A stretch of 64,000 bases of DNA from a virus: IMG/VR virus record IMGVR_UViG_3300000228_000004, positions 46,524-110,523 of that record. One strand, written 5' to 3'. The notes beneath the pieces were generated by a model. The model ran no database searches. It was not told where the DNA came from and saw only the letters and a program-made list of their open reading frames with translations. Both the position numbers and the translations under genes were made by a program. Position 1 is the first letter of the stretch. Every line of letters starts with the position of its first letter. Shown here piece after piece: positions 58,111-60,650 of this stretch.

Positions 58111-59016
58111 TTATCGTGGAACCCATCTATTTCTGAAGACAAAATAGTAAACTGAGTTTTTTTCATTTTTTCTAATCTTATCGGTTTCCCATTTTTTAAT
58201 ACCATATATCACTTCACCAATTTCAATGTTCTTTATCTTCGATGTAAATTCATCATATAAACCGCTATTTTTTAAAAGTTCAATGTCTTCATCACTATAA
58301 AAATTCTCAATTAATGTAGTCCTAACTAACGCTTCTCTAAAGATTGATTTCTTAATAGAAGAAACCGAAATAATTTTAAATCTGTCATTTAGAGCCTTTA
58401 TCGTAGAAAACGCCAAATGTATTACTGTCCCACCGACCCAAGGAAATGACAAACCTACGAAAACACCAGAAGCGAGTAATGACAACATTTTTAAACCCTT
58501 GTCACCGCCAAAAATATTCTCAAGTGAGAAGTCACCTAATAAAGCGCCAATAATATCTGAAAAATCGAAATCATATTCTATATCACCAGTGAATGACATA
58601 TTCAACCAGATGAAAACTAGAATACCCCCTACTGCGAACCCACCCAATCTCTTCATTTTGGGATTCGCTTGTAACCAAGTATCAAGTTCTTTTAATTTTT
58701 CAGTAGTCCACTTAGTGACTTTATTTTTAGAGGCAAATTTAAAAATTTCATTTAAAAGTGTTTTGTATGCTCTATACCCTTCTTTCACTGCTTTGAATAA
58801 AATATTGAAAGACCATTTTATTGAATTAAAAAATTTTAATACAAGCTTCTCTTTGAATAACTTTAGTAAATCCTTAAATCCAACATTTAATTTAGACGCA
58901 AGGTCAGTTATGAAGTCGATTTGATTCTTAAATTTATCAAATAACCCTTCATTGGCTTGTCCCAATAACATAGATTCTATGAATGATTCAAATTCTACGA
59001 TATTTACTTGGGTCAT
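58111..59016 (-). CDS. Membrane-spanning virion-type protein, 301 aa
   Basis: Starts with VEFESFIESMLLGQANEG, a leader-like LxxE segment. Two hydrophobic spans (LGGFAVGGILVFIWLNM near 125 and MLSLLASGVFVGLSF near 180) separated by an acidic loop. Not recognised; co-transcribed with leader-bearing proteins. Confidence 0.5.
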   Translation of the reverse strand: MTQVNIVEFESFIESMLLGQANEGLFDKFKNQIDFITDLASKLNVGFKDLLKLFKEKLVLKFFNSIKWSFNILFKAVKEGYRAYKTLLNEIFKFASKNKVTKWTTEKLKELDTWLQANPKMKRLGGFAVGGILVFIWLNMSFTGDIEYDFDFSDIIGALLGDFSLENIFGGDKGLKMLSLLASGVFVGLSFPWVGGTVIHLAFSTIKALNDRFKIISVSSIKKSIFREALVRTTLIENFYSDEDIELLKNSGLYDEFTSKIKNIEIGEVIYGIKKWETDKIRKNEKNSVYYFVFRNRWVPR

Positions 59017-60650
59017 TTTTGACCACCTATTAATTCAACAACTTTTCTTAACATATATACACTATTTCTTCTGAATGACTCGCCCTGAGTATAAGTTTTA
59101 ATAAGTTCATCGTAGAACGGGTAAACTTCTTTGGGCGTGTTTAATTTAAAATAATTCACATCACTGAGGTTTCTAATAACCTTAGTAGCCGACTCATCAT
59201 CATCAGACCTTTTCACTTCTTCAACTTGAACATCCAAATTTCTTTCTAGTTGTTTTCTATATTCAACTACTCTATCTGACCCAGCTAATACCGTATTGAT
59301 ATTATTTGAAGTTTTATTTATGATTGTAATAAGATTTCCTGTTTGCGCTTGAATAACTTCAACTTCCGGAAAAACCGCTTTTATCATATTTGTTCTTAAA
59401 GCCAGAGTTGCTTTAGTCTCTTTGTTTGTGACTAAAGAAACCGTGAGGGTATCACTCTTAGATAATGCTTGTTCGAACATTTTCTTATGCCCATTAGTGA
59501 ACACCCTAAACTTCCCTATCACCAACGCCCCATTGTTTCCAGGAAGCATCCTCATAATCATCGACTTTGAAGTGAGTTGTATGTCATCTCTGATATTTAG
59601 TTCAGTTTTCTTTTTATGGGAAAAATCTAAATGTAAATCTTTGTAAACCACTTGAGACAAGTCTTTAAGTACATTCGGGAATTTTTGCGTTAGATTTAAG
59701 TTTTTGATAATTTCAGATGCGCTCTCTCTGACCTTTAACCAATATTGGTCTTCATCATTGATTTCCATTTTGTATTTCATTTTAATACTAAACCTAAGTT
59801 CTTTATCATATTGGTCATCTTGTACTATCTTTATGATATCAGAATTCCCTATTGCTGAAGATAAATGTATTACAACCCCTTCTTCTTTAATTGAACCATA
59901 TAGGGATGGGAGTTGCATAAAGAAGTTTTTGGCTAGTTCCCAAAACCCGTATGGCGGTAATCCCTTAAATGAGTTTTCGAAATCTTTGAAATATTCTTTT
60001 GCTCTTTGATTAAGCCCCTTCGGCATATCAATGAGTTTTCCTGAAAAAATAAGTTCTGGTAAATTCAACCCTAGAAGTTTCGCCCATTTTTCCCTATCAG
60101 ACATATCTAAACCGTTCGTCTTGATATCAATTTTACCGTTATTAATAGATACATTCGTAACTTTACCATGCCCAATGAGAACTAATTGCCTAAGTTTTGT
60201 ATATTGGCGAGTCAAAGTTGGCTTGTTCATTAGAAATTCAACAAAGAATTCTGTATTCTTCGGGACTGATTTCCAAGACTTGAAATTGCCAGCCACATGG
60301 TCTATAACTGATTTGTATTGAGACACACCAACAGTTGTATCAAAATCACCTTGGGCGTGAGCGTACTCTGTGCCATATATAATATTCCCTTTATATGAAA
60401 CAATAAACATCTTCCACCATTGAGTGTCATCCCAATCTGAGCCAGTTCTAAGTAAGCTTAGTTTCGTACCATCATATTTACCATAAATGTCAACTGATTG
60501 GTTGATAAGCTGAGTTGCTGTTTTTTCATCGGTCACTACCTTATCAACATTCTTAATGCTGATATCTAAGTACGATGCCTCATTCTCTAAAATAGTATTT
60601 ATACTTTCTCGTATCACTAATAACCCCTCCTGAACCGAACCCAGATTCAT
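59013..60650 (-). CDS. RNA-ligase-like domain fused to a NMNAT-type nucleotidyltransferase
   Basis: 545 residues. Leader VIRESINTILENEA at 12-25. Residues ~50-330 have ligase-type motifs: I KYDGTKLSLL near 55, IV EEGVVIHL near 255, V FSIKMKYKM near 288. Residues ~370-490 form an adenylyltransferase fold: GKFRVFTNGHKKMF (the G-x-F-x-x-x-x-x-G-H signature) and VLAGSDRVVEYRK. Such fusion suggests RNA-end or NAD metabolism, perhaps making or ligating nucleotide-capped RNA; inferred from motifs only. Confidence 0.6.
   Translation of the reverse strand: MNLGSVQEGLLVIRESINTILENEASYLDISIKNVDKVVTDEKTATQLINQSVDIYGKYDGTKLSLLRTGSDWDDTQWWKMFIVSYKGNIIYGTEYAHAQGDFDTTVGVSQYKSVIDHVAGNFKSWKSVPKNTEFFVEFLMNKPTLTRQYTKLRQLVLIGHGKVTNVSINNGKIDIKTNGLDMSDREKWAKLLGLNLPELIFSGKLIDMPKGLNQRAKEYFKDFENSFKGLPPYGFWELAKNFFMQLPSLYGSIKEEGVVIHLSSAIGNSDIIKIVQDDQYDKELRFSIKMKYKMEINDEDQYWLKVRESASEIIKNLNLTQKFPNVLKDLSQVVYKDLHLDFSHKKKTELNIRDDIQLTSKSMIMRMLPGNNGALVIGKFRVFTNGHKKMFEQALSKSDTLTVSLVTNKETKATLALRTNMIKAVFPEVEVIQAQTGNLITIINKTSNNINTVLAGSDRVVEYRKQLERNLDVQVEEVKRSDDDESATKVIRNLSDVNYFKLNTPKEVYPFYDELIKTYTQGESFRRNSVYMLRKVVELIGGQK

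What the first reader, a model, noticed from the sequence alone, without database searches (positions are those of the whole stretch)
59013..60650. Fusion of RNA-ligase-like and NMNAT-like domains with a leader
KYDGTK (ligase motif I), EEGVVI (motif IV) and KMKYK (motif V) occur before a GKFRVFTNGHKKMF adenylyltransferase signature. Combining covalent nucleotidyl transfer with NAD-type adenylyl transfer could repair NAD after host NAD-depleting defence or build nucleotide-capped RNA. The leader implies it may be injected.
Basis: partly seen in the sequence, partly recalled or inferred. Interest (0 to 1): 0.72.

Follow-up and report, generated by a model that had tools for sequence, protein, structure and literature searches.

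The report
Phage ligase–adenylyltransferase fusion with capsid leader
A large tailed phage encodes a two-part enzyme that joins an RNA-ligase-like domain to a second, unrelated adenylate-transferring domain, travels with a repair-polymerase-like partner, and carries a short tag resembling the one phage T4 uses to pack proteins into its head, so it may be a nucleic-acid repair tool delivered with the viral DNA.

Summary
The gene (better start GTG at 60617, so 59013–60617, 534 aa) encodes a real two-domain protein. The N-terminal half has an RNA-ligase fold: best PDB match T4 RNA ligase 2, and 8 of 32 homologs hit Pfam RNA_ligase. KxDGxK, EG and a motif V lysine are conserved in 32/32. The C-terminal half is a HIGH-superfamily adenylyltransferase, closest in fold to CoaD and NMNAT. 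Instead the fusion co-occurs with a PolX-like nucleotidyltransferase (same 21 phage records, often adjacent) and often a PNK/zeta-like kinase, which points to nucleic-acid end repair. The leader looks like a T4 capsid-targeting sequence in many relatives (MKTFKQYITE|A against T4 MKTYQEFIAE|A) and is cleanly detachable, so packaging and injection are plausible but unproven. I found no published description of this fusion. New variant of the phage RNA-repair theme.

The parts
59013..60617 (-). CDS of the ligase-HIGH fusion, 534 aa, GTG start (ATG-based ORF runs to 60650)
   Evidence: Open frame; SD AGGAGG at 60631-60626 and homolog N-termini support GTG 60617; phrog_27149 E 3e-87
60570..60617 (-). 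Detachable leader MIRESINTILENE|A, candidate capsid-targeting sequence
   Evidence: Low pLDDT 1-28; leader motif at N-terminus of 14/144 minus-strand genes vs 0.5 expected; homolog leaders end in x-E|[AGSTN] just before the domain, 8 of 32 family members have none
59538..60569 (-). RNA-ligase-like nucleotidyltransferase domain plus helical extension
   Evidence: Foldseek T4 Rnl2 2hvr E 1.1e-6; PF09414 in 8/32 homologs, best 1.3e-5; motifs I, III, IV, V invariant
60462..60479 (-). Motif I KYDGTK (K57-K62)
   Evidence: K, D, G, K 32/32
60234..60251 (-). Motif III EFFVEF (E137 invariant)
59871..59882 (-). Motif IV EGVV
   Evidence: E256, G257 32/32
59820..59834 (-).
   Evidence: K 32/32; second-lysine position is V/Q/L/M
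59079..59537 (-). HIGH-superfamily adenylyltransferase domain (CoaD/NMNAT fold)
   Evidence: PF01467 24.1 bits vs cut-off 21; VIA Z 16.8 CoaD 6b7a (2.8 A, 145 residues), Z 16.1 NMNAT 1f9a (2.3 A, 145 residues)
59487..59516 (-). GKFRVFTNGH signature, H387 invariant
62008..63204 (-). Conserved partner: PolX/Pol-beta-like nucleotidyltransferase, 398 aa, phrog_19290, N-terminal GGN invariant
   Evidence: NGS, GDxD, DxE invariant; model pLDDT 90; Foldseek Pol lambda E 2e-3 prob 1.00, VIA Z 8.8 Pol mu; same 21 phage records as the fusion
57538..58086 (-). P-loop kinase (zeta-toxin/AAA_33/PNK-like) with leader MRRVYIREAI; recurrent third member of the module
   Evidence: Pfam Zeta_toxin 2.8e-10, AAA_33 1.3e-8; homologs in 9 loci, contiguous NTase-kinase-fusion in L021, L025, L027, fused to the NTase in L055

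Best explanation
It is a nucleic-acid end-repair enzyme, most likely for RNA. The ligase domain uses the motif I lysine to form an enzyme-AMP intermediate and seals 5'-phosphate/3'-OH ends (inferred from fold and motifs). The HIGH domain adenylates a phosphate group, plausibly an end of the same nucleic acid, as pre-activation or end processing (inferred, weakest step). It works in a module with a PolX-like nucleotidyltransferase that fills or extends the broken end and, in many phages, a PNK-like kinase that supplies the 5' phosphate (co-occurrence shown, cooperation inferred). In lineages with the leader, the protein is taken into the prohead, the leader is cut off after a glutamate by the gp21-type protease, and the enzyme enters the host with the DNA (inferred from similarity to the T4 capsid-targeting sequence).
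For: Ligase fold and Pfam RNA_ligase in homologs; invariant catalytic residues in 32/32; HIGH fold Z 16. Module: fusion and NTase occur in the same 21 of 50,697 phage records (15 Campylobacter, 6 Vibrio), in Campylobacter phages about 65 kb apart, and an NTase homolog is in 27 of 33 fusion loci; Xanthomonas phage X1 carries NTase and HIGH as separate nearby genes with a KLDG/EGVV/YKIV protein just before HIGH. Kinase contiguous in L021, L025, L027 and fused to NTase in L055. Leader: T4-type pattern [FY]xx[FY][ILV]xE[AGST] at the N-terminus of 6 of 32 fusions vs 0.005 expected; T4 IPII/IPIII begin MKTYQEFIAEA; five of five leader-bearing NTases in A4 have E exactly before the invariant GGN where leaderless ones have M. 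First 10 residues of T4 IPIII suffice for packaging, gp21 cuts after L/I-x-E, and cargo is delivered to the host (PMC9026906).
Against: No activity or virion data. Motif V lacks the second lysine of classical ligases, so the chemistry may differ. The PolX match is moderate (E 2e-3, Z 8.8). The kinase is missing from most fetched loci. hhalign against T4 Rnl2 alone was not significant. The window lineage's leader (MIRE[SA]I) is a divergent form and no gp21-like protease lies in the 110.5-kb contig, which may be incomplete. RNA or DNA as substrate cannot be told from sequence.
Confidence: 0.5

Rival explanations
1. NAD repair: the C-terminal domain is an NMN adenylyltransferase that rebuilds NAD after host NADase defence, with the ligase domain consuming or sensing adenylate.
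For: HIGH fold with Z 16.1 to archaeal NMNAT 1f9a; this phage does carry a NAD salvage route (NAMPT).
Against: A separate NMNAT-like protein sits directly beside the NAMPT gene (G000:18392-18940 and 18951-20399); only 2 of 14 tested records with the fusion have NAMPT; score 16 bits vs NMNAT cut-off 181; the ISSTxxR arginine is replaced in 25 of 32; the fold is equally CoaD-like.
Confidence: 0.08
2. RNA capping: the fusion makes or removes a 5' adenylylated (AppRNA) or cofactor-type cap on RNA rather than sealing it, with the ligase domain stalled at adenylate transfer because of the altered motif V.
For: Both domains belong to families that transfer AMP onto phosphate groups; second motif V lysine missing in all 32.
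Against: The PolX-like and PNK-like partners fit end repair better; no cap-related genes seen beside it.
Confidence: 0.17
3. DNA end or gap repair of the incoming phage genome (bacterial-NHEJ-like): PolX fills, kinase heals, ligase domain seals DNA.
For: Partner's nearest folds are gap-filling Pol mu/lambda/beta; packaging with DNA would place it at injected genome ends.
Against: The ligase domain matches RNA ligases (Rnl2, PF09414), not DNA ligases, best; the phage has its own DNA ligase at 54440-55855.
Confidence: 0.2
4. The leader is not a capsid signal but some other tag, and the protein acts only after synthesis in the cell (compatible with any of the enzymatic readings).
For: Eight of 32 family members, and the cultured Vibrio and Campylobacter phages, have no leader, so packaging is not essential to function; the window-lineage leader is divergent from the T4 form.
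Against: Near identity of relatives' leaders to the T4 CTS at the mapped positions, with a glutamate cleavage site at the domain boundary.
Confidence: 0.35

Closest known systems
T4 RNA ligase 2 family (Rnl2, Pfam PF09414)
   Same: Fold (best PDB match 2hvr), order of motifs I, III, IV, V, lysine in motif I
   Different: KxDGxK instead of T4 Rnl2's KIHGTN, second motif V lysine lost, fused to a HIGH domain, helical region before it; the window protein itself gives no PF09414 hit
CoaD (phosphopantetheine adenylyltransferase) and NMNAT, HIGH superfamily (PF01467)
   Same: Nucleotidyltransferase fold with T-N-G-H, Z about 16
   Different: Far below CoaD and NMNAT curated cut-offs; ISSTxxR arginine displaced; fused behind a ligase
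Phage RNA-repair sets (Rnl1/Rnl2 + RlaP Pol-beta + PNK; PMC7824862)
   Same: Ligase-like enzyme accompanied by a Pol-beta-superfamily NTase and a kinase
   Different: Partner NTase does not match RlaP (PF10127); the ligase carries a HIGH domain; the phage has Rnl1, an Rnl2-like gene and RlaP in addition
T4 internal proteins IPI-IPIII and Alt (capsid-targeting sequence)
   Same: Short N-terminal leader with aromatic residues and I/L-x-E cut site, placed exactly at the domain boundary
   Different: Cargo here is a nucleotidyltransferase enzyme set; the window lineage uses a variant leader M[IL][RK]E[AIS][IV]

Membership tests
Rnl2-type RNA ligase (PF09414) | Ligase/nucleotidyltransferase fold | tested here: met
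   Foldseek 2hvr E 1.1e-6, prob 1.00
Rnl2-type RNA ligase (PF09414) | Nucleophilic lysine in motif I, glutamates in III and IV | tested here: met
   K57, E137, E256 32/32
Rnl2-type RNA ligase (PF09414) | Motif V with two lysines (KxK) | tested here: not met
   First K 32/32; second is V/Q/L/M in 32/32
Rnl2-type RNA ligase (PF09414) | Curated model score | tested here: not met
   No hit for the window protein at E 0.1; 8 of 32 homologs at E<=0.1, best 1.3e-5
Rnl2-type RNA ligase (PF09414) | RNA sealing activity | not testable with these tools
   needs assay
HIGH-superfamily nucleotidyltransferase (PF01467) | Fold, HxGH-type motif and curated score | tested here: met
   24.1 bits vs 21; Z 16.8; H387 32/32
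NMN adenylyltransferase (TIGR01527) | Curated equivalog score | tested here: not met
   16.1 bits vs 181.2
NMN adenylyltransferase (TIGR01527) | ISSTxxR arginine | tested here: not met
   I at that place in the window protein; R in only 7 of 32
CoaD (TIGR01510) | Curated equivalog score | tested here: not met
   22.7 bits vs 103.3
T4-type capsid-targeting sequence | N-terminal leader with aromatics at positions 4 and 7 and [LI]-x-E cut site | tested here: inconclusive
   Met in several homologs; the window lineage has the divergent MIRESINTILENE form
T4-type capsid-targeting sequence | gp21-type protease in the same virus | tested here: inconclusive
   PF03420 at E<=0.001 in 9 of 22 records (8 over cut-off), none in the 110.5-kb own contig, possibly a fragment
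T4-type capsid-targeting sequence | Protein present and cleaved in virions | not testable with these tools
   needs virion proteomics
RlaP (PF10127), for the partner NTase | Pfam match | tested here: not met
   None of 24 members matched PF10127 at E 0.1

The most novel reading that the evidence does not exclude
A virion-delivered nucleic-acid break-repair kit in which a HIGH-family domain makes the adenylated end that a motif-V-altered ligase domain then seals, together with a PolX-like end-filling enzyme: a new division of labour for ligation, injected with the genome to pre-empt host RNA- or DNA-cutting defences.
Probability: 0.15. Interest if true: 0.85.

Novelty: new variant of a known kind. 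Interest (0 to 1): 0.62.

Why it matters
Phage RNA ligases are known as counter-defence against tRNA-cutting host toxins, but a ligase fused to a HIGH adenylyltransferase, tied to a PolX-like partner and carrying a head-packaging-like tag, appears undescribed in the papers searched. If packaged, repair enzymes would be present before any phage gene is expressed, when second-line defences fire. Cultured Vibrio (Va1, phiKT1024) and Campylobacter (CP220, CPt10) phages make the enzyme testable at once, and the reading gives a functional hypothesis for two PHROGs of unknown function (27149, 19290).

Tried and rejected
ATG 60650 start: rejected for GTG 60617. NAD-repair role: disfavoured. Sequence search of the single protein against the PDB and hhalign against T4 RnlB alone: not significant. 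Profile search of A3 against PDB sequences found only the HIGH domain. Profile of the partner NTase against PDB sequences: nothing. The VIA list for the whole fusion model showed only the HIGH domain, so it does not test the ligase half. X1 ligase-like neighbour: motif-level match only, E 0.064 and hhalign P 0.01 on motifs IV-V. The virion protein table of Campylobacter phage IBB_35 lies in a supplement that could not be opened (one search shows only the main text); its relatives have the leaderless form anyway. The review of RNA-repair systems that the jumbo-phage paper cites (reference 178; I tried a DOI from memory) is not held, so prior mention of the fusion there cannot be excluded. The genome-contig scan found only two HIGH-only bacterial hits, so no sign of the fusion in bacterial genomes at that sensitivity.

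Full report
What is there. The window is the last 64 kb of a 110.5-kb virus record. A GTG at 60617 lies 8 nt after AGGAGG, while the ATG has no such site; starting there the protein reads MIRESINTILENEASYLDIS, like the closest homologs MIHEAIHKVNEADDYLNIS, MIQEAINRVNETNEYLNIS and MINEAVRTVVSEAEYLNIS. I take 59013-60617, 534 aa. Residue numbers below follow alignment A3 (ATG-ORF number minus 1).

The two domains. Pfam sees only the C-terminal HIGH domain in this protein (24.1 bits, cut-off 21), but of 32 family members 8 match RNA_ligase PF09414 (best 1.3e-5) and 19 match CTP_transf_like. The AlphaFold2 model built on 32 sequences has mean pLDDT 89.2 and pTM 0.81, with the leader (1-28) poorly modelled. 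Foldseek ranks T4 RNA ligase 2 first (2hvr, E 1.1e-6, prob 1.00) and then many CoaD chains; VIA gives Z 16.8 for CoaD 6b7a and 16.1 for NMNAT 1f9a over residues about 370-523. In the viral library, the two best matches are uncharacterised homologs from related phages, followed by cytidyltransferase-like proteins and RNA ligases.

Catalytic residues. In 32/32 sequences K57, D59, G60, K62 (motif I), E137 (III), E256, G257 (IV), K273 (V) and H387 are invariant. The place of the second motif V lysine of classical ligases (established knowledge of the family) is V, Q, L or M in all, a real departure. In the HIGH domain the first histidine of HxGH is T in 24 of 32 (as in CoaD, TxGH), and the arginine of ISSTxxR is present in only 7 of 32. 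NMNAT and CoaD equivalog models score far below their cut-offs (16.1 vs 181.2 and 22.7 vs 103.3 bits). So: a HIGH adenylyltransferase of unknown substrate.

Distribution and partner. The fusion is in 21 of 50,697 phage records (15 Campylobacter, CP220/CPt10-type; 6 Vibrio, Va1-type), with only a separate HIGH match in Xanthomonas phage X1, and in 43 IMG/VR loci. The gene at 62008-63204 has the same distribution: the same 15, 6 and X1. In Campylobacter phages the two genes are about 65 kb apart (CPt10: 20 and 85.6 kb), so close linkage alone does not explain it, though the phages fall in only three lineages. A homolog is in 27 of 33 fusion loci, often directly upstream of or overlapping the fusion gene. 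Its alignment has invariant NGS, GDxD and DxE, the metal-binding pattern of Pol-beta nucleotidyltransferases; its model (pLDDT 90) matches Pol lambda by Foldseek (E 2e-3, prob 1.00) and Pol mu, beta, lambda and TdT by VIA (best Z 8.8, 176 residues, rmsd 3.4). That is moderate and I call it PolX-like. It does not match RlaP; a true RlaP is elsewhere in the window at 50299-51324 (3.9e-19). A P-loop kinase (57538-58086; zeta toxin/AAA_33, phrog polynucleotide kinase 1e-4) has homologs in 9 loci, is contiguous with NTase and fusion in L021, L025 and L027, and is fused to the NTase in L055. In Xanthomonas phage X1 the parts are separate nearby genes: an MGGN-starting NTase (hhalign 2.8e-35), a protein with KLDG, EGVV and YKIV, and the HIGH domain; the ligase-like one is a motif-level match only.

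NAD. The same virus encodes NAMPT (PF18127 4e-23) with an adjacent NMNAT-like protein. NAMPT is found in only 2 of 14 tested records that carry the fusion, the own contig and one relative. The fusion is thus neither needed for, nor tied to, the NAD salvage route described in phages (PMC9503650). The own contig also has Rnl1 and an Rnl2-like gene and a DNA ligase.

The leader. Fourteen of 144 minus-strand genes of this virus carry the motif [ILMVF][RKQH][EQN][AI][ILVAM] within the first 12 residues, against 0.5 expected in shuffles (maximum 4); at least one of the listed genes (21795-23528) is probably chance. In relatives the leader takes the T4 form: MKTFKQYITE|AKAMLDIS (L024) beside T4 IPII and IPIII MKTYQEFIAE|A read from the T4 record. 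The pattern [FY]xx[FY][ILV]xE[AGST] is at the N-terminus of 6 of 32 fusions against 0.005 expected. By experiment the first 10 residues of IPIII suffice for packaging, residues 4 and 7 matter for targeting, 8 and 10 for cutting, gp21 cuts after [LI]-x-E, and fused cargo is delivered to the host (PMC9026906). The leader is detachable: by inspection of A3, 24 of 32 fusions have one and 8 begin at or near the domain (MLDIS, MQKDQIDIS; also MSKQHLDIS in Va1). The partner NTase starts M|GGN when leaderless, and all five leader-bearing rows of A4 have E exactly before the invariant GGN, so cutting after E would give the same mature end. NTases without N-terminal leader often end in leader-like tails (ESFRNLIGWL, SLIREALRRVK, window SIFTEALRRIL), and T4 Alt and gp21 are known to be processed at the C-terminus too. 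A gp21-like protease is found in 9 of 22 records, not in the own contig, which may be incomplete. Injection is thus plausible for leader-bearing lineages, not shown.

Conclusion. Shown: two enzyme folds with key residues conserved in one protein, a conserved partner, a detachable leader. Inferred: nucleic-acid end repair (RNA favoured because of the Rnl2 match), HIGH domain acting on an end phosphate, packaging and injection. Three literature searches on the combination found no description of the fusion; the comparative papers on jumbo phages and NAD systems do not mention it in the passages read.

Noticed in passing
window 56169-63735: A run of small genes shares the N-terminal leader M[IL][RK]E[AI][IV] (56169, 56595, 56838, 57538, 60707, 63204, 63493), also scattered elsewhere in the genome: a whole candidate set of packaged proteins.
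   Followed up: partly
window 62008-62050 and homologs: C-terminal leader-like tails on NTases (and on the fusion in L001, L002 and the window, e.g. MLREAV, ILRKAI, MLRKVV) where the N-terminal leader is missing; possible C-terminal capsid-targeting tag.
   Followed up: partly
G000:18392-20399 (L013, L061): NAMPT gene with adjacent NMNAT-like gene: a phage NAD salvage route outside the window.
   Followed up: yes
window 50299-51324: RlaP RNA-repair nucleotidyltransferase (PF10127 3.9e-19), separate from the PolX-like partner.
   Followed up: yes
L025:7953-9482: In this homolog the HIGH domain looks swapped for a canonical one (GRFQPLTKGH, ISATKVR), suggesting domain replacement.
   Followed up: no
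L010:5137-8486 (Xanthomonas phage X1): Split version of the module: NTase, unknown gene, ligase-like gene and HIGH gene in a row.
   Followed up: partly
HM246721.1 (Campylobacter phage IBB_35): The fusion gene is annotated as two ORFs; frameshift, split gene or sequencing error.
   Followed up: no
window 17840-18397 and G000:30805-31902: ORF starts carry intein-like C-terminal ends (HNYILGNGLISHNS, HNYFAEGLNVSNC) ahead of phage replication-type genes.
   Followed up: no
window 34424-36305: GroEL-like and GroES-like genes side by side.
   Followed up: no
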